Notes under the pieces: model-generated
Databases searched by the model: none
The model's input: only the letters and a program-made list of their open reading frames with translations
Told to the model about the DNA's origin: nothing
Origin: Yoonia sediminilitoris
Lineage (GTDB): Bacteria > Pseudomonadota > Alphaproteobacteria > Rhodobacterales > Rhodobacteraceae
Length of the DNA stretch: 64,000 nt
Reading direction: 5' to 3'
Assembly (NCBI RefSeq): GCF_003058085.1
Contig: NZ_QBUD01000006.1
Location: forward strand, 1 to 64,000
In this document: positions 52,494 to 63,316 of the stretch, piece after piece
How the letters are laid out: every line of letters begins with the position of its first letter
How positions within the stretch are numbered: the stretch's first letter is position 1
Translations under genes and position numbers: made by a program

Positions 52494-54314
52494 TTACTTG
52501 TCCTCGGACTTGCCTGTGGTCGCAGATTTGCCCCGCTTGAACCCGGATTTGATGTTTCCAAACACATCAGGTTTGTTCCCGAGGCTCCGCAGGATCACAT
52601 ACTGCTGGCCAAAGGTGATGATGTTGTTGGTAATCCAGTAAACCACCAGACCGGAGGCAAACGACCCAAGCATGAACATAAAGACCCACGGCATCCACGC
52701 AAAGATCATCTGTTGCGTCGGATCAGTTGGGGCGGGGTTCAGTTTTTGCTGCAACCACATCGAAACACCAAGCAGGATCGGCAGGATACCAATCATAATC
52801 AGCGCAAGGAACGACCCCGGCTCTGGCGCGGCCCATGGCAGCAGCCCAAACAGGTTCATCAGCGATGACGGGTCAGGCGCGCTTAGGTCCTTGATCCAGC
52901 CAAACCACGGGGCGTGACGCAATTCGATCGTGACAAAGATCACCTTGTAGAGCGAAAAGAAGATCGGAATTTGCAGAAGAATAGGCAAACAACCGGCAGC
53001 CGGGTTTACTTTCTTTTCCTTGTACAGCTTCATCATGCCCTGCTGCATGGCCGCGCGGTCGTCGCCGGCCTTTTCTTTCAGGGCTTCCATTTCGGGCTGC
53101 AATTCCTTCATGCGGGCCATGGAAACGGATGATTTATAGGTCAGCGGCAGCACCAGCGCCTTGAGGATAAAGGTCAGCGCAATGATCGACCAACCCATGT
53201 TGCCGATAAAGGCATTGAGGTAGTGCAGCAGCGCAAAAATCGGCTTGGTCAGGAAAAAGAACCAACCCCAGTCAATGCTGTCCAGAAATCCTGGAACCGG
53301 CGCTTCGGAGTCATCTTGGTAGTTGCGGATCGATTCCCATTCCTTTGCGCCCGCAAAAAAGCGGGTCGAAACAGTCGCCGTACCGCCTGCAGACACCACC
53401 TGAGGGGCCATGATTGCTTCGGCCTGATAAATGTCGCGATTGTCGAAATAACGCACGCTGGCCCGGAACGGCGCTTCGGCAGCAGGGATCAGGTTTGTCA
53501 TCCAATAGTGGTCGGTCCAGCCGATCCAGCCGTTTTGCGTCACTTCCTTGCGCGCGTCGGGCCCATCTGGCTCGAAATCAACGATGTCGTCATAGTCTGT
53601 TTCGGTCAACTCACCGTCTGTCATCTGCACCAGACCTTCGTGCAGGATGAAGAAGTTCTTCATGTCGTCAGGTTCGGAATAACGCCGGATCAGGCCATAG
53701 GGCCGTGACGTGAAATCACCTGATCCATTGTTGATGACCGACTGATCAAAAGTGAACATGAACTCATCGTCAACAGAGATACGGGTCTGGAACTGCTGCC
53801 CCTGCCCGTTGTCCCAACCCAGCGTAACAGGCGTGTCAGGGGTCAGCGTGTCACCTTCGATCAATGACCAGATCGTTTCGTCGTTGGGGGCGCTTTCCGC
53901 GTCACCTGTCCAGCCAAACAGCGCCAGATAGGCATCTGTTTCGCCCACAGGCCGCATCAGGCGTACGGTGTCGGCACCCGGATCAAGCGTTTCGCGGTAG
54001 TTGGTCAGCGCCAGATCATCTATGCGACCGCCCCGCAGTGACAAGGACCCCGAAAACTGTGCAGTTTCAATTACGACACGCGCCGCGTCGGCACGGTCTG
54101 CGGGCGCTGTCGGGTCTGCGGCACCGCCGGACACTGCACCGTCACCGGTACCACTTTCCACAATTGGCACGGTTGACCCAGTTGCCGTTTCGCCCGCGAC
54201 TTCGGCGGGCACATCGACGGGTGCCTCTGGTGGCGGAAAAATCAAGGTCCAAGCCAGAATAACGGCAAAGCTCAGCACCGTGGCAAGGATAAGGTTCTTG
54301 TTCTGGTCGTCCAT
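52494..54314 (-). CDS. yidC: Membrane protein insertase YidC
   Basis: Inserts and folds inner-membrane proteins. N-terminal anchor NLILATVLSFAVILAWTLIF, then a large periplasmic beta domain (about residues 60-350) and five conserved segments: YLNAFIGNMGWSIIALTFIL, LYKEKKVNPAAGCLPILLQI, IPIFFSLYKVIFVTIELRHA and so on to GLVVYWITNNIITFGQQYVI. The ATG at 54314 (MDDQNKNLILATVL) matches homologues; a start five codons earlier at 54329 is also open. Length about 606 residues. Confidence 0.95.
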   Translation of the reverse strand: MDDQNKNLILATVLSFAVILAWTLIFPPPEAPVDVPAEVAGETATGSTVPIVESGTGDGAVSGGAADPTAPADRADAARVVIETAQFSGSLSLRGGRIDDLALTNYRETLDPGADTVRLMRPVGETDAYLALFGWTGDAESAPNDETIWSLIEGDTLTPDTPVTLGWDNGQGQQFQTRISVDDEFMFTFDQSVINNGSGDFTSRPYGLIRRYSEPDDMKNFFILHEGLVQMTDGELTETDYDDIVDFEPDGPDARKEVTQNGWIGWTDHYWMTNLIPAAEAPFRASVRYFDNRDIYQAEAIMAPQVVSAGGTATVSTRFFAGAKEWESIRNYQDDSEAPVPGFLDSIDWGWFFFLTKPIFALLHYLNAFIGNMGWSIIALTFILKALVLPLTYKSSVSMARMKELQPEMEALKEKAGDDRAAMQQGMMKLYKEKKVNPAAGCLPILLQIPIFFSLYKVIFVTIELRHAPWFGWIKDLSAPDPSSLMNLFGLLPWAAPEPGSFLALIMIGILPILLGVSMWLQQKLNPAPTDPTQQMIFAWMPWVFMFMLGSFASGLVVYWITNNIITFGQQYVILRSLGNKPDVFGNIKSGFKRGKSATTGKSEDK

Positions 54315-54552
54315 GCGATAACCGCCCATTTTTCCGCGTCAAAGTCTGGGGGCCGTTCAACCCGCGCAGGGCGCAAAGGTCAAGCGGTTTTGGCCGAATA
54401 ATGGGCAAATCCCCTAGTTGTTATAGGCGCGGGTCACATCTATTGACCCGATCACGTGTCGTTTTCACCCCTTTCAAGTTTGTTGGCAACATGAACCATT
54501 GCATGACCGCAGGTAGCTAACTACCGTCGCGCATTGGGTATTGGAGGAAACT

Positions 54553-56490
54553 GTGCTTGGCACACTAGACCACAAACTTGACGTAAAGCTGATTGGCCTG
54601 TTTTCCATGACAGGTCCCGATGCGCAGTCCGTTCTGCCAAAATCCCGCAAATCGTTGGGGCTTTTGGCGTTTCTGGCCTTCAACTACGACAAGCCAATAT
54701 CGCGGTCTCGCCTGATTGACCTGTTCTGGCATGACCGTGACCCCGAGCAGGGGCGCGGCAGCCTGCGACAGTGCCTGCATGAATTGCGCAAATGTCTGGG
54801 TCCGGACCATCTGGATGCGCTTGAGGTGTCGCGCAATACGGTGCTTTTGCGCTCAGACGGGATCAATTTCGACCTGTGGGACCGTGACGGGCAGCTTGAC
54901 TATACATTGTGCGAACCCCTTCTGGATGATCTCGACCCCGTCGCACCTGTGTTCGACGACTGGTTGTTTGAATGCAGGCGGGTTGTTCTGGCCGGGCAGA
55001 TGCGCGAGGCCGAAAAGGACCTTGATGCACTTGATGTTACGCGCGACTCCGAGCAGGCGGAATTGATCGCACAAGCGATGACCACACTTGACCCCACCAA
55101 CGAACCTGCCAGCCGCAGCCTGATGACCGCCCTTGCCGCACAAGGCAAATTGTCGGCTGTGCGCGCTGAATTCGACCGGTTGGAGCGCGCGCTGAAAGCA
55201 GACGGGTTCACTATCACCGAAACAACCAACCTTTTGTTTCGGTCATTGCAGGCCAGCCCGGACAGCCCGACCAGTCAGACAGTCGCCGCACACCCGATCA
55301 ACCAGATACCCGCCATTGCATTGCAACTGACAAACACGCCCGGCGATGACAGCGTTGTCCAGATCTACGCACAGCCCTTGCTTGACGAATGTCTGATGCG
55401 CATGTCCAGCGTGCCAGAGTTGCGCATTGTCGCCCAAAGCGGCGATGATCTGTCTGCGGAAGTCAGCTTTGTGTTCGAATGCGGTATTCGCCAGAAGGAC
55501 AACATCTGTCTATGTACGTTGCGCCTGATCGAGCGAAACACACGGCAAATCGTCTGGAGTTCGCGGCAGTCGATTGACGCGGACAAGTTTCATGAGCAGC
55601 TGGATGTGGTCGCAGATCTGACCACATCGGCCGTCATCGCAGCCATCGAGCGGTTCGAAACCCGACAGATGCACGCTCAAAACCTGCCGCCGCAAACACC
55701 CTACGCCTATTACCTGCGCTCCAAGGATACGTTCTTTAAGGCCGCTGATCCGGGCTACGTGAAGTCGGTCGAGGCCGATCTTGTAACGGCGCTTGAGATC
55801 GACCCAGAGTTCGAGCCAGCCTGCGCCCAGCTGATACAGATCTGGAACACCGGTGCATTCATGAGCGAACCGGGGCTTGATATGCAGCCCGGGCGGGTCA
55901 AGGCGCGCGCCTTGGCCGAAAGGTTACTCACGATCAATTCGATGCATCCAAACGCGCATATCGCGATGTCGTGGTGTCAGATGTGGACGCAAAATTTCGT
56001 CTCCGCCGAACGCCATATCGAACGCGCCATCGCATTGGCCCCCTATGAGGCGCACAGGCTGAACGCCATCGGCACCGCGCTTGTCTATCTTGGCCGTCTG
56101 GAAGATGCCGAACATTGGTATCATCAGGCACAAAGCCGGATGCTGCACGAACTGGACTACCAGCGTACCGATTACGGAGAGCTTTATTATTTCAAGCGGG
56201 ATTATGAACTTGCGCTGAGCTGGCTGAACTTCGGCGAACGGCGCGCACCCTACCGCACCCATTTCTGGACCGCCCTGACGCTGGCCCAATTGGGCCACCT
56301 GAGCGGCGCAATGGCCGAGGTCGAGGCAATGACGTCATTGGTCGAAAAACGATGGGTCGGCACCACGCCCTGTAATGCCGCGAGCGTTGCAGAGTGGCTG
56401 TTGCAAACAGTCCCCCTGCGCCGCGAAACCGACCGCGATGTTCTGCGCGAAGGGCTCAGCAAGATCGGTCTTGGCAACGTGAAGTTCTAG
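54553..56490 (+). CDS. SARP/BTAD-type transcriptional regulator with TPR-like C-terminus (GTG start)
   Basis: A 645-residue regulator. Residues about 1-95 form an OmpR-like winged helix (LLAFLAFNYDKPISRSRLID, with GRGSLRQCLHELRKCLG), followed by a BTAD-type helical domain to about 230, a strand-rich TolB-like middle, and TPR-like helices (HIERAIALAPYEAHRLNAIG, AEHWYHQAQSRML). The GTG at 54553 has a GGAGG at 54543-54547. It ends 24 bp from the end of the convergent TfuA gene, and is the natural candidate for controlling that cluster, which is inference. Confidence 0.85.
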   Translation: MLGTLDHKLDVKLIGLFSMTGPDAQSVLPKSRKSLGLLAFLAFNYDKPISRSRLIDLFWHDRDPEQGRGSLRQCLHELRKCLGPDHLDALEVSRNTVLLRSDGINFDLWDRDGQLDYTLCEPLLDDLDPVAPVFDDWLFECRRVVLAGQMREAEKDLDALDVTRDSEQAELIAQAMTTLDPTNEPASRSLMTALAAQGKLSAVRAEFDRLERALKADGFTITETTNLLFRSLQASPDSPTSQTVAAHPINQIPAIALQLTNTPGDDSVVQIYAQPLLDECLMRMSSVPELRIVAQSGDDLSAEVSFVFECGIRQKDNICLCTLRLIERNTRQIVWSSRQSIDADKFHEQLDVVADLTTSAVIAAIERFETRQMHAQNLPPQTPYAYYLRSKDTFFKAADPGYVKSVEADLVTALEIDPEFEPACAQLIQIWNTGAFMSEPGLDMQPGRVKARALAERLLTINSMHPNAHIAMSWCQMWTQNFVSAERHIERAIALAPYEAHRLNAIGTALVYLGRLEDAEHWYHQAQSRMLHELDYQRTDYGELYYFKRDYELALSWLNFGERRAPYRTHFWTALTLAQLGHLSGAMAEVEAMTSLVEKRWVGTTPCNAASVAEWLLQTVPLRRETDRDVLREGLSKIGLGNVKF

Positions 56491-56513
56491 GGGCAACCCC
56501 GTTCATTCTGACC

Positions 56514-57251
56514 CTATGGCTCGAACACCGCGCGGCGCATTCTTTTGTAGGACGGGGTCAGCGGCGGTGCAAAACTTTGGGAGATTGCGGGCAGTTCGCG
56601 GGTCTTGTCCTTGGAGATACGGTTAAGCATCGCAATCGCATCAAGGCGCTTTCGTTGCACATGCGCCTGCGCAAGCAGTGTTTGCAGCTTCTCGGCAGCG
56701 CTTTGGTCCGTGGACCCTTCGGCAGCAACCTTCGACCATGTGCGTTTGGGGTAATAGATCTTGCGAGATTTCTCGCTCAGCCGTTGGACCTCGAATGCGG
56801 TCAGCATACCCCTGTTGCGCAAAGCGTCCAATGTCGCATCAACGTCGACCTGTGCCACGTTCAGCGCAGGGTATCCCAACTCTGCCGGACCATGGTTGAC
56901 GGCCACCTCGGCATCGGACTCCAGCCTGCCGTCATGGTAGGCCTCAAACACTTCGCCAATACCGATCATTCCGTAGGTTGACAGTTCGCTCGCGCGCAAG
57001 GCCCCCATGGAAGCCGCGCCATAGACGTGGCAACCAGCCGACAGCGCCTCAAGGATTTCCTTGTGCAATACCCCCGGACGAGACCCGAAAAACCCATCGA
57101 CAATTCCGATAAACCGCGGCGGGCGATTGTTCTTCAGTAACCGCAGGACATCGCCACGCCCCACGGGGGGCATGAATTGCATCTGCGGGAATGTTTCGCG
57201 GTCCCTTCTGGTCAGGCTTGGTCCGGCAAAGATGATGGCAGAGTTATTCAT
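56514..57251 (-). CDS. TfuA-like protein
   Basis: A 245-residue protein with the TfuA core: IIFAGPSLTRRDRETFP, PRFIGIVDGFFGSRPGVLHK, EILEALSAGCHVYGAASMGA, LRASELSTYGMIGIGEVFEA. TfuA proteins work with YcaO enzymes to place thioamide bonds in peptide backbones (known for methanogen McrA and thioamide peptides, and first named for trifolitoxin). The start at 57251 overlaps the YcaO stop by eight bases (ATGAATAA). It is the last gene of the cluster and is convergent with the SARP gene. Confidence 0.88.
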   Translation of the reverse strand: MNNSAIIFAGPSLTRRDRETFPQMQFMPPVGRGDVLRLLKNNRPPRFIGIVDGFFGSRPGVLHKEILEALSAGCHVYGAASMGALRASELSTYGMIGIGEVFEAYHDGRLESDAEVAVNHGPAELGYPALNVAQVDVDATLDALRNRGMLTAFEVQRLSEKSRKIYYPKRTWSKVAAEGSTDQSAAEKLQTLLAQAHVQRKRLDAIAMLNRISKDKTRELPAISQSFAPPLTPSYKRMRRAVFEP

Positions 57252-58497
57252 GGTCCGCGCTCCTGTAACGATTACCGCGCGTTGGACCTTTGCTGGTGAG
57301 ATACCCAAGACCGGGAACAAAGACGCGCACAACGTGGATCGGTAGATCCGCTTTACTCAGATCGACCACATAGATTTTTTCCAATCCGGCTGCGGTCAGT
57401 TTCCGGGTCAGAATATCGAGATCACCCATTGGCGATGTGCCTGCCGCGCACGCATCAAAACATCTTGTCTTGTCAGCGGTTTGCAGGTCTGCGGCCATTT
57501 CCAGAAGACGGCCCAGATTACCGTCAGCGATTGTGTCATAGCGGCGATCCGTCAGGTCATCGCGGGCACCCGCGATGCAGGTCAGCCGACTTTGCGCGGC
57601 TTCGGTGATCGCGCGCACAAGGGCAGTCTGCGGGTCAAGGTGACAGCCACAGCCCAAGCCCGGTTGCGCCCTCGGCCGCCCATGACCAGGCACGGACTGG
57701 TCGACCGAAAACAGGGTCGCACGCATGGCAGGCACGCCAATGTCGTTGGTCAGATCGTGGATAAAGACGTGGAAACCGGCACTTGCGATCAAATCCAACA
57801 GGGTCTTTGCATCCCCGGTGCACGCATCCAGCATGTGGGGATGGCACAGACGCGCGGCGCGATCCTGTGGGGTCATGTGGGCGAAATCGGCGATGCAGTC
57901 ACGCTCGATCAATTCGTGCAGGCCGGACACGATCGCCTCAGTCAGGCTGTTGCCAGACGCCAGACCATTCGTTGTCCGATGAAAACCCTTGTGTTGCGGC
58001 GCTTGAGTGTAATCCTTGCCGATCAGATCAATCGGCAGCGCGACTACGCGGTCTGCTATGATGTCGCGCCCCTCCAGAATAGTTAACTCCTGATCCCAGA
58101 CGGGCGGGTCTGACATCGGCAGACTCTCCAGATCGGTTGCCTCCATCAGGTCCAAGCCGCTGATTTGCTGGAATGGACCATCAAGGTTTTCGGCGTGCCA
58201 ACCCTCAGCCGCCTCCATCGCGGCAGAAACACGGGCAGCGGGCAGCGTCATGCCCTTGCCCTGCGCCACAGACAAGGACCGCCCCAAAGGCCGAATAGCC
58301 TGTGCCACCGGAATGCCGATGCGGTCAAGCCCGGTGATATCGGCAAGCCGTGTTATCCCCATTCTGGGCAGATAGGGCGTGATTTTTTCCAGCGTGTCCT
58401 GTGGCGGACAAATCCGATGTTGCCAGCATTTCTGGCGGGTGTCGGTCAGGGCAGTCTGTACCCCGCCCGACACATCGGAAGAGCGCGTCTTAGTCAT
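57244..58497 (-). CDS. YcaO-domain ATP-dependent peptide-modifying enzyme
   Basis: A 417-residue YcaO protein: ITPYLPRMGITRLADITGLD, AMEAAEGWHAENL with the ATP/Mg-binding Glu pattern, ASGNSLTEAIVSGLHELIER and LVRAITEAAQSRLTCIAGAR. It activates backbone amides with ATP for attack, forming azolines or thioamides. It lacks the PxPxP tail typical of azoline-forming cyclodehydratases and has a TfuA partner, favouring thioamidation. The start at 58497 overlaps the 196-residue gene by eight bases; the longer frame upstream is a shadow of the repeats. Confidence 0.9.
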   Translation of the reverse strand: MTKTRSSDVSGGVQTALTDTRQKCWQHRICPPQDTLEKITPYLPRMGITRLADITGLDRIGIPVAQAIRPLGRSLSVAQGKGMTLPAARVSAAMEAAEGWHAENLDGPFQQISGLDLMEATDLESLPMSDPPVWDQELTILEGRDIIADRVVALPIDLIGKDYTQAPQHKGFHRTTNGLASGNSLTEAIVSGLHELIERDCIADFAHMTPQDRAARLCHPHMLDACTGDAKTLLDLIASAGFHVFIHDLTNDIGVPAMRATLFSVDQSVPGHGRPRAQPGLGCGCHLDPQTALVRAITEAAQSRLTCIAGARDDLTDRRYDTIADGNLGRLLEMAADLQTADKTRCFDACAAGTSPMGDLDILTRKLTAAGLEKIYVVDLSKADLPIHVVRVFVPGLGYLTSKGPTRGNRYRSADHE

Positions 58498-59080
58498 CAG
58501 AGTCTGCTGCATCGCCGAAGTCGGCCGCGTCGCCGAAATCTGCCGCATCGCCAAAGTCGGCCGCGTCACCAAAGTCGGCTGCATCCCCCGAACCCTTGAT
58601 ATTCGCGTCCTCACGCCCCGCGAACACGGCGGAAAAGGCGACCTCTTCCAGCGCGAAATCAGCAAGCTGGTCTTTGGTGATCCCTTCGTCATTGTCGCGG
58701 GTACGGCGCAATGCGGCAAGTGCACTGGCGTTTTCGGCCGAGGTCCGCAGAACATAGCAACAGCGCTTGTCATCCGCCGCAAGCCCTAGTGGGACAAAGC
58801 CGCGCGCCACAAAATAGGTGCCCACCGGATCATCGGGCTGCCGGAAAACAACCAGATGCGGGTTCCTCAATCCGCCGCCACTTGCCAAATTCACCTCTCC
58901 GAACCGCTCGTGGCGCTTTTCCGTGAAATCCTCGACGTTTGTAATGTTGCCCGCCAAGCCGGGAATCACATCATCACCAAGCGGGGTGACGCCCGTGCCG
59001 GTCACCTGATTGATCCATTCCTTTGTCGCGATGGCGGCTTTTCCGTTCTGTGTGTAAACAACTGCAAATATTTCTGACAT
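58490..59080 (-). CDS. Candidate modification substrate with C-terminal GDAADF repeats
   Basis: A 196-residue protein, no signal peptide. Residues 1-163 form a mixed, probably folded region starting MSEIFAVVYTQNGKAAIATK, with two adjacent Cys in KRCCYVLRT. Residues 165-194 are five tandem six-residue units, four of GDAADF and a last GDAADS, before SDD. Its gene is followed, with eight bases of overlap, by YcaO and TfuA. A leader/core precursor is the favoured reading, but the N-terminal region is long for a leader and could be an accessory domain. A GGGAAGAG site precedes the ATG. Confidence 0.75.
   Translation of the reverse strand: MSEIFAVVYTQNGKAAIATKEWINQVTGTGVTPLGDDVIPGLAGNITNVEDFTEKRHERFGEVNLASGGGLRNPHLVVFRQPDDPVGTYFVARGFVPLGLAADDKRCCYVLRTSAENASALAALRRTRDNDEGITKDQLADFALEEVAFSAVFAGREDANIKGSGDAADFGDAADFGDAADFGDAADFGDAADSDD
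58499..58588 (-). repeat. Five 18-bp coding tandem repeats (GDAADF units)
   Basis: Codons vary between units at third positions (for example GAT or GAC, GCA, GCG or GCC, TTT or TTC, GGT or GGC) while the peptide stays fixed apart from the last Phe to Ser change. The DNA repeats have therefore diverged under constraint on the protein. Confidence 0.9.
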
Positions 59081-59095
59081 TACTCTTCCCTTGGT

Positions 59096-61417
59096 TCACA
59101 TTTCTTGCTGGGCGCCTTGCGCCCTTATTTTGTCGGCTATCTGGGGCAGTTGTTCAAGAAACCGCGCCTTTGCCTGGCTGTCGGGCAGGCTGGCATGAAG
59201 TGCCGCACTGATCCGGACCACATTCTCGTCGAATTGAACATCGGACCCATAGCTGATGACATCTGCGCCTCGGGCGGCCGCTGCGGCATCATGCGGGATC
59301 ATATGCTGAATGACCTCCTGTTGCAGATTGATCAGCCAGCGCAGGTCCGGGCGATCTGCGATGCCAAGCTTCAGCCCGGGATCCCTCAGCAGGGCAAGCA
59401 GCTCCCGCGTGCCCCGATCTGCCGTGTGCCCGTCGAAATCGTCGGTATAGCGGATGGCCTGCATCAGTTCAGCCAGTTCACTGTGCTTGAGGATTGACGA
59501 AACTTTCTCCGTGGCCGGACCAAAAATCGGGCTTGCGTCGTCTGACTGGTAACTCACAAAAACGGGCCACGCATAAACAGGCCGCCCGACTTTGGGCAAA
59601 TAGACGGTCTGAAAGGTGAAATCATGCCCGCCGCCGGGATGGTCATGCAGCCAGCCGGGGCGCACAAAGGGTATTGGCGTCCGGAACTCGACCTGCCCGT
59701 TGGGCAGCGTTGTAACGCTGGCCCTTTGCAACTGATTCATCCCGCCGCGACCGCCTAGCCGGATCGGCCTGAGTTTGTATTCGTATGACCTGCCGCGTCC
59801 GACATCCGACCAAGGGTCGCGGGATTCGCGCCTGACCAACAGGAACAACCGCCCCGACCCGAACCGAAAATCCAGATCATGGCCCATGCCCGTCACCATG
59901 TCAGCAGCGCCGCGCATCACGACGGTGCCCGTCAGCGGCTCGTAACAGGTCTTGAGCGACCCGTTCGCGTAATATTTGGCCAGAAAAACCTTGCGGTCGT
60001 TTGATCTGTCGAACCGGTCTGGGTCTACATCCAGTTCCATTTTCATCAGAAAATCACCCATGCTCGGGTTTGATTTGATCTTTAGCTTGGCCCGGCGACT
60101 ATCGGAAAAAGCGCGCTGACCGGCGGCAATCTGGTCAAACGGGGCATGAAACAACTGCATTTTTTCGCGGGCTGTAAAATCAACACCGGCATCGGGCGCA
60201 AGGGACGCCTTGAAGGCGCGGTCAGAGCGGACGCTGCGCGCACGACTGCGCGCCGGCGCATCATTGATCGACGCAAAGTAATAGTCCATGACGCTGCCCA
60301 GCGGGTAAAAGGCCCCATAGTTGGTCCAAGACCTTGCGTGCGGTTCGCTGCGGCCCAAGGCAGGCCCAAAAAGATTACGCTGCCATGGGTGCGGCAGGTT
60401 CAGCAAATGTGTCAGTTCATGCAAGACCGCAAAGCGGATACGGTATCCAATGGCCTTGATATCCGCTTCGCTGGCTGTTGCGTGATCAAAGGGCACGTCG
60501 TTTTGCGCATTATAGGCTGTGATATAGCTCGACAGGATTTCATACGGAAAGATCGCGGCAACCGTGCGGTTTTGATGGGTCTGAACAGGGTTTGAAAGGC
60601 CCGGCACACGGCCCTGCGGGATATTGTTTTCATCGTCATCATCGTTCAGTGCCGAATAAAAAATATCGAAGGTGAACGGATGCTCTGGCGGGGCGTCCAA
60701 CGCCCGCAAATAGCCATCAAGGCTGCCCAGAACAGGTTTACCAAAGACCTTGCCACCTTTGATTTTCTCGACCTTTGCGATTTCGACTGACACTCCCGTC
60801 TGGCTAAAGCTGTCCAGAACATCAAAATTCTCAGTCTCCGGCAGATATTTCCCCAACGCGAAATCAAGGACATGCTGCATGAACAGGTCCTTATAAAGTG
60901 TCTCGTCCAAGGCAGCGCGCAGAAAGATACGGCGGAAGGTGGGGGAATGACCAACCTGTTTCGACAGCGCACCATCCAGCGCTTTTTTGTCCCCGTTTAT
61001 CAGGGAAAACTGGCAGTCACGAAGCGTGGCTGTTGGGGCAGTCTCATCAAACCGGCATGTGAGTACCAGCTTTTCACGGCGGCGTGTGCGCCCCTTTGAT
61101 CGGGTCACGGCGCAGACAGCGGCCACGTCCCAACCCAAAGTATCCCTTGGCAGATACAGCGCCTCACTGCGCCAGGACATCATCCATTTGTCGGCGCGTT
61201 CATCCTCTGGCGTGGTGCCATCAAACAAGTCACCGCTGATCATGGCGTTGTCAGGATCGACGCGCAAAATCATGAGGCATTGCTTCTGGTGCGCACCACT
61301 CTGGAGCGTTACCACCAACTCGTAGCGGCCCTTGCGGGGGACAAGCAGCCCGCAATCCGCACTTTCCGCAGGGGCATAAAGCGTAGGATCATCCAAGAGC
61401 TGTTCAATTTGATTCAT
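59096..61417 (-). CDS. Large metzincin-like zinc metalloprotease
   Basis: A 773-residue protein without signal peptide or membrane segment, hence probably cytoplasmic. The zinc site is VLHELTHLLNLPH (His333, Glu334, His337, His343), spaced as in metzincins but with Asn at the usual Gly position, and a Met-turn GSVMDYYF (Met377) follows 34 residues on. The N-terminal 150 and C-terminal 350 residues have no recognised domain. It is 15 bp upstream of the repeat-protein gene in the same operon; cleaving the modified peptide is a natural hypothesis. Met at 61417 is preferred to the GTG at 61432. Confidence 0.82.
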   Translation of the reverse strand: MNQIEQLLDDPTLYAPAESADCGLLVPRKGRYELVVTLQSGAHQKQCLMILRVDPDNAMISGDLFDGTTPEDERADKWMMSWRSEALYLPRDTLGWDVAAVCAVTRSKGRTRRREKLVLTCRFDETAPTATLRDCQFSLINGDKKALDGALSKQVGHSPTFRRIFLRAALDETLYKDLFMQHVLDFALGKYLPETENFDVLDSFSQTGVSVEIAKVEKIKGGKVFGKPVLGSLDGYLRALDAPPEHPFTFDIFYSALNDDDDENNIPQGRVPGLSNPVQTHQNRTVAAIFPYEILSSYITAYNAQNDVPFDHATASEADIKAIGYRIRFAVLHELTHLLNLPHPWQRNLFGPALGRSEPHARSWTNYGAFYPLGSVMDYYFASINDAPARSRARSVRSDRAFKASLAPDAGVDFTAREKMQLFHAPFDQIAAGQRAFSDSRRAKLKIKSNPSMGDFLMKMELDVDPDRFDRSNDRKVFLAKYYANGSLKTCYEPLTGTVVMRGAADMVTGMGHDLDFRFGSGRLFLLVRRESRDPWSDVGRGRSYEYKLRPIRLGGRGGMNQLQRASVTTLPNGQVEFRTPIPFVRPGWLHDHPGGGHDFTFQTVYLPKVGRPVYAWPVFVSYQSDDASPIFGPATEKVSSILKHSELAELMQAIRYTDDFDGHTADRGTRELLALLRDPGLKLGIADRPDLRWLINLQQEVIQHMIPHDAAAAARGADVISYGSDVQFDENVVRISAALHASLPDSQAKARFLEQLPQIADKIRAQGAQQEM

Positions 61418-61477
61418 GCATTTTTCTCTCACCTAAGCCATTCAATGCGCAAACCATGGCCAAGGTTTGTCGATCAC

Positions 61478-61529
61478 AAAAAAAGCTGCGTTGGCACACC
61501 ATGGGGGACAAACATGGCGGCCAACGCAG
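61478..61529 (-). terminator. Strong rho-independent terminator after the peroxidase gene
   Basis: CTGCGTTGGC at 61486-61495 pairs with GCCAACGCAG at 61520-61529, with an inner CCATG/CATGG, and a run of seven A at 61478-61484 gives a T-run on the minus strand. It ends the peroxidase transcript 14 bp after its stop and separates it from the protease operon. Confidence 0.85.
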
Positions 61530-61542
61530 GTGACGCGCAAGT

Positions 61543-62943
61543 CTAGGGGAGGTCAAGAACGCGCATCAAACTTTCAAAACTTTCAATCGTTACGCCGGAA
61601 ATGGCTGTACTGTCTGTGGGGTGCCACAGCCCGGTCGTCGCACCACGCTGAAGGAGGGCGGAAGCATGATCGTTACTCAAAATACCAACTAACGTCTCTG
61701 CCACGAGGGTTGAGCCAAGTGGACCTAATCGTTTGCCCTGTCCGAGGATTTCAGCCTCTTTCAGGATGTAGACACAAAGTGGGGTCTGGCGGGCAAAAGT
61801 GCGCACAGCCGTCAGATCTGTTGGTGCGATGACAGGAATCTCTGTACCCTGTGTCTTGTTCAATTGTGCTATGCAGGCCTGCGCGGATGGCAGATTCAAC
61901 CGCTGGTTCTGGTACAATGTGCGGCTGTCCAGTTTGCGGGATGTCGCTTGGCTGTCTGTGTTGGTCAGATGCGCCAAAGCGGGGGGAATCCCAAGCTTGA
62001 ACTCCAACGGGATCGGCTGGTGCTCTGGCGCCGCCAACCGGCAGCCTGCCCGAAAGGCGCGGTAGAGGGTGGCACGGCCGTCCAGAACGCGCTTTAACAC
62101 ATCGCGGTCACAAATTTGCGGCAGATAATCGTGCAAGATGAGCCAATGATAATGCAGCCGCACCTCGCGACGTGCCCAGGCATGTACCTGCGCATAATCG
62201 TTGTCGGCACGGGGCAGTGGATAGCAATCCACGAATGCGTTGTGCAGACTCAGCAGCGCCAGATGCAGGGCCGATAGGTCTGGCGACCTGTCATTGCGGC
62301 TGTCGCCGATGACAGCGCGGTGCAGGTTCAGTGCGCCATCACGCCGGATGAACAATTCACGGGCATCTTGCGGCAAATCCAGAAGGTCTTTGCGTGTGAT
62401 TGCCTCGTCTGCGCCCTGCTTCATCACCTGATGCAGGCGCACCAGATCGTGCGGCCCTTTCTGGCGCAACGCTGTGGCTGTGGCAGTCGCAGTCACTTCC
62501 GTCGGCGTGAACCGGCCAATCCGCATTTTTGCAGGGTCATTGCTGTCGCGCAACAGCGCGCTGAACCTGCGCAACGCGGGATGGGTGACACGCGGATTAC
62601 CATATATACTGTCCAGCGCCAGACGACCCGACTTTTCATTGACCAGTACATGTCTGATCCGATTGCGGGCGCGCGGCGTGACCTGCGAGCCTGTCACGCG
62701 CAGATATTCGGGGTCAGTTGCTGTCTGTTGCGCAATATCGTTGAGGATAAACCGGCCGATATGGGCCATTGCCGCAGGCATCTGCCGTGGGCGTGCCGGT
62801 GTCAGTTCCGCGCAAAGCGCGTCAAGGCCGCCCAACGTAGTGTGATCGTAAGCTGCGCCATCGGCATCCGGAAACATATAATCGAAACCGGTGCAGTCGT
62901 CGGTGTCATGATCATGATGAGGGGCCCTTTCGTGTGGGGTCAT
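61543..62943 (-). CDS. Bacterial animal-type haem peroxidase
   Basis: A 466-residue protein of the An_peroxidase superfamily. Diagnostic parts are GDSRNDRSPDLSALHLALLS with the LHNAFVD helix, LHYHWLILHDYLPQI, and LGSTLVAETLVGILSNDHAS near the C-terminus. The N-terminus is His/Asp-rich (HHDHDTDD). No signal peptide is visible. It should use hydrogen peroxide to oxidise small organics or protein side chains. The Met at 62943 is preferred to one at 62952. It is upstream of the protease-YcaO-TfuA operon on the same strand, with a terminator between. Confidence 0.88.
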   Translation of the reverse strand: MTPHERAPHHDHDTDDCTGFDYMFPDADGAAYDHTTLGGLDALCAELTPARPRQMPAAMAHIGRFILNDIAQQTATDPEYLRVTGSQVTPRARNRIRHVLVNEKSGRLALDSIYGNPRVTHPALRRFSALLRDSNDPAKMRIGRFTPTEVTATATATALRQKGPHDLVRLHQVMKQGADEAITRKDLLDLPQDARELFIRRDGALNLHRAVIGDSRNDRSPDLSALHLALLSLHNAFVDCYPLPRADNDYAQVHAWARREVRLHYHWLILHDYLPQICDRDVLKRVLDGRATLYRAFRAGCRLAAPEHQPIPLEFKLGIPPALAHLTNTDSQATSRKLDSRTLYQNQRLNLPSAQACIAQLNKTQGTEIPVIAPTDLTAVRTFARQTPLCVYILKEAEILGQGKRLGPLGSTLVAETLVGILSNDHASALLQRGATTGLWHPTDSTAISGVTIESFESLMRVLDLP

Positions 62944-63316
62944 GCAGTACATGCCTATTTGCCTTTGCCGTTAGGTTCTGTTGGTGCCCCGAAGGTCGAA
63001 AGCCCCGGGATCAAAGTTAACATCATCAAAAAGCACGCCCGTTAACGCTGGGTCAGCCAAACGCTACTAAATCGTTAAAACGACAGACCCCACGAAATTT
63101 GATAAAGCGGTTCAAATCCATATTTGCGCCGAAAAATCACGCAAAAACAGATACCTATAAGAATTTCAAATTTATTAACGTGGATTTGACGCGGGGTTCA
63201 CCCGCACCTGATTAACTGTCTTTGCAGGCCAATATCGGGGCCAGCCGCACTGCATTCACAGTGTGTTTTGACGGTTAACCCTTGCGTTGCACAGGCAACC
63301 TGTGAGGACGATTGAG
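62944..63316. promoter_or_regulatory. AT-rich divergent intergenic region
   Basis: No gene is seen. It separates the peroxidase gene from the divergent membrane protein gene and is clearly AT-richer than its surroundings around 63050-63190, so both promoters should lie here. A GCGGG-GTTCA-CCCGC stem is at about 63190-63204, and CACTG-CATTCA-CAGTG at about 63248-63263. Confidence 0.4.

What the first reader, a model, noticed from the sequence alone, without database searches (positions are those of the whole stretch)
56514..61417. TfuA-YcaO peptide-modification locus with a dedicated metalloprotease
Metalloprotease, repeat-tailed protein, YcaO and TfuA are four consecutive minus-strand genes; the last three are joined by 8-nt overlaps, indicating a fixed stoichiometric unit. 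YcaO plus TfuA is the established pair for backbone thioamidation (methanogen McrA, thioamide peptides) and TfuA comes from the trifolitoxin system. No dehydrogenase partner for azole formation and no PxPxP YcaO tail is present, so thioamidation is the likely chemistry. The association with a large cytosolic metzincin-like protease and a haem peroxidase does not match a characterised RiPP class that I know of.
Basis: partly seen in the sequence, partly recalled or inferred. Interest (0 to 1): 0.93.

Follow-up and report, generated by a model that had tools for sequence, protein, structure and literature searches.

The report
Repeat-tailed peptide precursor with own protease
Four adjacent genes encode a protein with a zinc-protease motif, a protein ending in five copies of a six-residue repeat, and the YcaO and TfuA enzymes; the enzymes likely put sulphur into the repeats and the protease would then cut them free, a peptide-making layout for which our searches found no published description.

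Summary
Window 56514-61417 (minus strand) carries metalloprotease (MP), repeat-tailed protein, YcaO and TfuA; the last three genes overlap by 8 nt. The tail is five GDAADF-type units whose codons differ almost only synonymously (33 synonymous, 4 non-synonymous of 60 codon pairs), so the units are selected as protein.

The cassette is real and rare. Their proteins diverge (23-33% identity) but keep A-x-D twice, six residues apart, at the C-terminus. The haem peroxidase is not conserved.

A parallel layout occurs in other Alphaproteobacteria, including Rhizobium johnstonii 3841: YcaO, TfuA, an unrelated HExxH...E protease, and a 155-293 aa protein ending in short repeats at 8 of 16 loci read (VSGAK, VSGAR, SRAVMA, VGRSDL, SRSGG). 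The unit is not obligate: some loci lack the protease or YcaO-TfuA.

Best reading: thioamide-type RiPP-like systems with protein-sized, multi-core precursors and dedicated zinc proteases. A published 20-120 aa precursor search would exclude the 196-aa protein. Chemistry, cleavage and product are inferred.

The parts
59096..61417 (-). MP: 773-aa protein with HExxHxxxxxH zinc motif; predicted N-terminal beta-barrel (about 21-159) and metzincin-like catalytic region (about 158-432)
58490..59080 (-). Repeat-tailed protein, 196 aa, proposed precursor/carrier
   Evidence: Same position in 4 of 4 MP loci; 23-33% identity; no homologue at E <= 1e-3 in two searches of the 5.8-billion protein set, which see only relatives sharing short words
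58490..58588 (-). C-terminal tail: five 18-nt units GDAADF x4, GDAADS, then DD and stop; proposed multi-core
   Evidence: Tandem repeat 58501-58585; synonymous codon differences between units; A-x-D ... A-x-D invariant in 4 of 4
57244..58497 (-). YcaO (417 aa), proposed ATP-dependent backbone thioamidation enzyme
   Evidence: PF02624 1.6e-64; nearest solved structure MJ1094; MP-linked YcaOs form one clade, support 100/98
56514..57251 (-). TfuA (245 aa), partner of YcaO
   Evidence: PF07812 3.8e-41; NF033432 200.5 bits, below its 235.2 cut-off
54541..56490 (+). BTAD/TPR (SARP-type) regulator, convergent with the operon (3' ends 24 nt apart); proposed pathway regulator
   Evidence: PF03704 4.5e-06 plus TPR and Trans_reg_C matches; homologue in the same place and orientation in L005, L006, L007, 38-43% identity

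Best explanation
This is predicted to be a peptide-maturation operon in which YcaO and TfuA likely turn backbone amides of the GDAADF repeat tail (58490-58588) into thioamides and the co-encoded metalloprotease would then cut the modified tail from its carrier domain. Shown here: gene order and overlaps, enzyme families, zinc motif, a repeat tail under protein-level selection, recurrence of the cassette with a convergent BTAD/TPR regulator in three other Rhodobacterales records, and a parallel layout with a different zinc-motif protein. Inferred: (1) the repeat protein is the substrate (about 0.8); (2) the chemistry is thioamidation, possibly one per repeat and perhaps at the glycine (about 0.7 for thioamidation; the residue is a guess); (3) the metalloprotease acts on the repeat protein (about 0.55); (4) short thioamidated peptides are released (about 0.4). 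The roughly 164-residue N-terminal part would serve as carrier and recognition domain, and the BTAD/TPR protein would control the operon.
For: YcaO and TfuA adjacent and overlapping. The YcaO profile best matches MJ1094. YcaO-TfuA is described as the thioamide-forming pair (PMC8120280, abstract), and in thiovarsolin a repeat-bearing precursor plus YcaO and TfuA suffices for thioamidated units (PMC6511847, passages). The tail is selected unit by unit, and A-x-D at 6-residue spacing is kept in 4 of 4 MP loci although the rest diverges. A tailed protein beside an HExxH protein recurs with an unrelated protease: 9 of 34 YcaO loci carry the HExxH...E type; in 8 of 8 not cut by a contig end a 167-293 aa protein lies beside it, 6 of these 8 with tandem 5-6 residue tails. 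Motif residues are intact in 7 of 7 and 9 of 9. Tandem arrays lie near YcaO: 11 of 14 within 4 kb (261 kb), 3 in the remaining 321 kb, p = 0.011 (window not counted; the 11 include two in L064 and one in L065 not tied to a precursor, while one of the 3 far ones, L016, is the repeat protein itself at 4.2 kb). The four MP-linked YcaOs form one clade.
Against: No chemistry can be seen in sequence. The unit is not obligate: 2 Paracoccus loci have YcaO, TfuA and a related repeat-tailed protein without an HExxH protein in the stretch read; 2 Rhizobium loci have protease plus repeat protein with no TfuA on the same plasmid. In 6 of 8 Rhizobium/Sinorhizobium plasmid loci read, and in L065 and L068, the tail has no clear repeat. 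Repeats in L005, L006 and L007 are only two units and not significant when any lag is allowed (p 0.09, 0.05, 0.18). N-domains of the two layouts, and of small precursors elsewhere, do not match by profile. The AF2 model of the repeat protein is uninformative (pLDDT 38.8). No exporter was recognised among the seven proteins scanned.
Confidence: 0.5

Rival explanations
1. The modified protein itself is the product: YcaO-TfuA would thioamidate the tail, and the intact tail binds and restrains the co-encoded zinc protease (a pro-inhibitor or client), with no peptide released.
For: The large carrier domain (about 164 aa) is unlike a short leader. Protease and repeat protein stay adjacent even without TfuA on the plasmid, which points to a direct protease-tail relation. 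Thioamidation of whole proteins has precedents in McrA (PMC5589413) and uL16 (PMC13063428), both seen as search listing with start of abstract. No exporter recognised among the proteins scanned.
Against: Individually selected, near-identical units look more like multiple cores than one binding site; Paracoccus loci keep the tail without the protease nearby.
Confidence: 0.25
2. An ordinary thioamidated RiPP cluster of the thiovarsolin kind whose protease is incidental; only the large precursor is unusual.
For: Repeating cores with YcaO-TfuA are known (PMC6511847, passages); 21 of 34 YcaO loci carry neither MP nor the HExxH...E protease.
Against: MP lies directly upstream of the precursor in 4 of 4 loci, and an unrelated HExxH protein lies beside a tailed protein in 8 others.
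Confidence: 0.15
3. YcaO-TfuA modify something else (the protease, the peroxidase or a ribosomal protein) and the tail is a passive interaction or solubility tag.
For: Tails without repeats occur with YcaO-TfuA; some loci lack one partner.
Against: The repeat protein overlaps YcaO by 8 nt and lies between MP and YcaO in all 4 MP loci; tail units are conserved at nearly every residue.
Confidence: 0.1

Closest known systems
Thiovarsolin cluster (varA, varY, varT; Streptomyces varsoviensis)
   Same: YcaO plus TfuA acting on a precursor with tandem repeated cores; thioamide in each released unit (PMC6511847, passages)
   Different: Precursor found by a 20-120 aa search, APR core, heme-oxygenase-like tailoring enzyme, no specific protease in the cluster; here a 196-aa carrier, acidic GDAADF tail and a 773-aa zinc-motif protein in the operon
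McrA-glycine thioamidation pair (YcaO-TfuA of methanogens)
   Same: Closest NCBIfam models and (recalled identity of MJ1094) closest solved YcaO; thioamidation of a full-size protein
   Different: Both NCBIfam models below their curated cut-offs; proposed substrate here is a co-operonic repeat-tailed protein, with a protease
Trifolitoxin and other TfuA-YcaO clusters
   Same: YcaO plus TfuA; Malit et al. report 613 TfuA-related gene-cluster families (PMC8120280, abstract, sections 12-13)
   Different: In the main text of that paper the strings protease, proteinase and metallo do not occur and peptidase only as a prolyl endopeptidase; supplements not seen. Trifolitoxin details are recalled, not tested
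Metzincin proteases (ADAM/adamalysin-like)
   Different: No Pfam family match; Asn at the usual Gly of the motif; Met-turn-like Met in only 3 of 7 members (motif definitions recalled); extra N-terminal beta-barrel

Membership tests
TfuA-YcaO thioamide RiPP systems | Adjacent YcaO and TfuA genes | tested here: met
   PF02624 and PF07812 above cut-off, 8-nt overlap
TfuA-YcaO thioamide RiPP systems | No azole dehydrogenase or E1-like partner among the genes beside them | tested here: met
   Pfam and NCBIfam of the six proteins 54541-62952 show none
TfuA-YcaO thioamide RiPP systems | Precursor of 20-120 aa (the RiPPER window) beside them | tested here: not met
   The candidate that overlaps YcaO and is kept in 4 of 4 loci has 196 aa; window size from PMC6511847. 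This is a search convention more than a chemical definition
TfuA-YcaO thioamide RiPP systems | Thioamide in the product | not testable with these tools
   Needs mass spectrometry
Thiovarsolin family | Tandem repeated cores in the substrate | tested here: met
   Five 6-residue units
Thiovarsolin family | APR-type core and heme-oxygenase-like VarO | tested here: not met
   Core is GDAADF; no such family among the flanking proteins scanned
McrA-glycine thioamidation proteins (TIGR03266, NF033432) | Scores above the curated cut-offs | tested here: not met
   220.3 against 365 and 200.5 against 235.2 bits
Metzincins | HExxHxxGxxH zinc motif | tested here: inconclusive
   Three His and Glu identical in 7 of 7; Gly replaced by Asn in 7 of 7
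Metzincins | Met-turn | tested here: inconclusive
   [SE][WV][MT]xY stretch; Met in 3 of 7, Thr in 4 of 7 including the window's own
Metzincins | Metzincin fold | tested here: inconclusive
   [not shown]
Protease activity of MP | Cuts a peptide bond in the repeat protein | not testable with these tools
   Needs purified protein

The most novel reading that the evidence does not exclude
A distinct RiPP-like class of Alphaproteobacteria: protein-sized carriers display tandem 5-6 residue cores, YcaO-TfuA thioamidates every unit, and zinc proteases of two unrelated families have been recruited independently to cut each unit free, with the chemistry of the tail (acidic GDAADF against basic VSGAK/R) matched to the protease; missed so far because searches stop at 120-residue precursors.
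Probability: 0.35. Interest if true: 0.8.

Novelty: new variant of a known kind. Interest (0 to 1): 0.62.

Why it matters
If true, precursors of thioamidated peptides can be full-size proteins with repeated C-terminal cores, so length-limited mining has overlooked a branch that occurs on many rhizobial plasmids (124 plasmid records hold the related protease) and scattered through Rhodobacterales. It would supply a dedicated maturation protease, which the thiovarsolin paper noted as absent from its cluster (PMC6511847), and a compact three-gene test bed (carrier, YcaO, TfuA) with five near-identical sites in one substrate. A kindred layout lies in Rhizobium johnstonii 3841, so function can be tested in a named strain.

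Full report
1. The observation. The four minus-strand genes are present at the stated coordinates. YcaO and TfuA are certain by Pfam. The repeat protein and YcaO share ATGACTAA, YcaO and TfuA share ATGAATAA, so both overlaps are 8 nt; MP and the repeat protein are 15 nt apart. The tail is five units, GDAADF four times and GDAADS once. Between units, 33 of 60 codon pairs differ synonymously and 4 non-synonymously, the latter all from one residue. The units are therefore selected as protein and are not a fresh DNA duplication.

3. Recurrence of the exact cassette. A scan of the 84,980-species genome collection with the MP profile gave four loci, three of them real (L008 matched over 17 residues only). 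All three (L005 Shimia MAG, L006 Histidinibacterium aquaticum, L007 Rhodobacteraceae MAG) read MP, 170-200 aa protein, YcaO, TfuA, and then a convergent regulator 38-43% identical to the window's 54541-56490. The proteins at the repeat position share 23-33% identity with the window's, yet A167, D169, A173 and D175 in the tail are invariant in 4 of 4. The two-unit tails of L005-L007 are weak taken singly. The four YcaOs form one clade with support 100/98. MP was found in 1 of 295 genomes drawn from the family (only the window's own), and YcaO at E <= 1e-30 in 1 of 56 genomes of the genus (again its own). In 4 of 5 congeners read, the gene next to yidC is the homologue of the window contig's 66676-67683 gene, so the locus sits at a rearranged, probably acquired site.

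4. The parallel layout. YcaO searches brought 30 further loci, some from the same genome; with the window and the three MP loci, 34 in all, and TfuA was found beside YcaO in 33 of 34 (not L063). Nine of 34 carry, instead of MP, a protein of about 420-440 aa (L061: open frame 532) with HExxH plus a downstream Glu (9 of 9 intact), unrelated to MP by profile, with sub-threshold M36/M4 matches. Beside it, in 8 of 8 loci not cut by a contig end, lies a 167-293 aa protein; 6 of 8 end in tandem VSGAK, VSGAR, SRAVMA or VGRSDL units, and 5 of these 6 finish in a short acidic end. In these 6 the units differ mainly or only synonymously. In PLSDB this protease is in 124 plasmid records, 115 of them Rhizobium. 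Of 8 such plasmid loci read, 6 have YcaO and TfuA in front (no clear repeat in their tails) and 2 (R. etli CFN 42 p42c, Rhizobium sp. NZLR1; SRSGG repeats) do not, with no TfuA on either plasmid. The layout is present in R. johnstonii 3841 pRL11. Two Paracoccus plasmids have YcaO, TfuA and a related protein with GMSV-type repeats but no HExxH protein in the stretch read.

5. Mechanism. YcaO and TfuA resemble the thioamide kind, and in thiovarsolin a repeat-bearing precursor with YcaO and TfuA is enough to give thioamidated units (PMC6511847, passages). The co-operonic, unit-by-unit selected repeat tail is the best substrate candidate. The recurrent pairing of a tailed protein with a zinc-motif protein, through two unrelated families, suggests that the protease acts on that protein; whether it releases peptides or is held by the tail is open. 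Loci lacking one partner show that the modules can be separated. The haem peroxidase-like neighbour (61543-62952) is not conserved: L007 has a vanadium bromoperoxidase there (390.7 bits), L005 a GDSL-trypsin protein.

6. Novelty. Searches of the held papers found no description of YcaO-TfuA with a co-operonic metalloprotease and protein-sized repeat-tailed substrate; most hits were seen only as listings with the start of the abstract. Of Malit et al. (PMC8120280) I saw the outline, abstract, sections 12 and 13 and term searches of the main text; supplements could not be opened, so single clusters of this kind may sit there unnamed. Of PMC6511847 and PMC8719888 I saw passages. RiPPER's 20-120 aa window would exclude the 196-aa protein. 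I file it as a new variant of TfuA-YcaO systems.

Noticed in passing
window 61543-62952 (-): Protein with a weak animal-haem-peroxidase match (PF03098, E 0.0035, below cut-off) directly upstream of MP; in L007 the same place holds a vanadium bromoperoxidase, an unrelated peroxidase family.
   Followed up: partly
window 52494-54329 and 63287-67683 (contig C6): yidC is separated from the neighbour it has in 4 of 5 congeners read, which lies inverted at 66676-67683; the locus sits in a rearranged stretch.
   Followed up: partly
L094 8347-8949, L095 8353-8958: R. etli CFN 42 p42c and Rhizobium sp. NZLR1 p1: HExxH...E protease plus protein ending in SRSGG repeats, next to an adenylate/guanylate cyclase-domain gene, with no TfuA on the plasmid.
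   Followed up: partly
L102 8599-9159, L103 5730-6230: Paracoccus denitrificans and P. kondratievae: YcaO, TfuA and a protein with GMSV-type repeats, but no HExxH protein in the stretch read.
   Followed up: partly
L049 9820-10056, L050 9749-9928, L056 8096-8272, L105 5653-5850, L106 5455-5796: Small proteins with an RGADGRL[YF] motif beside YcaO-TfuA and large cyclase-related proteins, some with Crp regulators; those of L050 and L056 end in doubled SAEIF/SADLY units.
   Followed up: partly
L054 10127-10543, L052 9699-10652, L064 9943-13309: Longer repeats next to YcaO: RHAANFIGTTPDDSQ (15 residues), DADAGRWA[VI][TS]P units (317-aa protein), and very long 15/30-nt arrays of unclear frame.
   Followed up: no
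34 YcaO loci; L108 3677-5668: Proteins matching the cyclase-TPR or BTAD-TPR regulators lie near many of the YcaO-TfuA pairs, and a BTAD regulator gene lies before YcaO-TfuA in R. johnstonii 3841 pRL11.
   Followed up: no
[not shown]
   Followed up: partly
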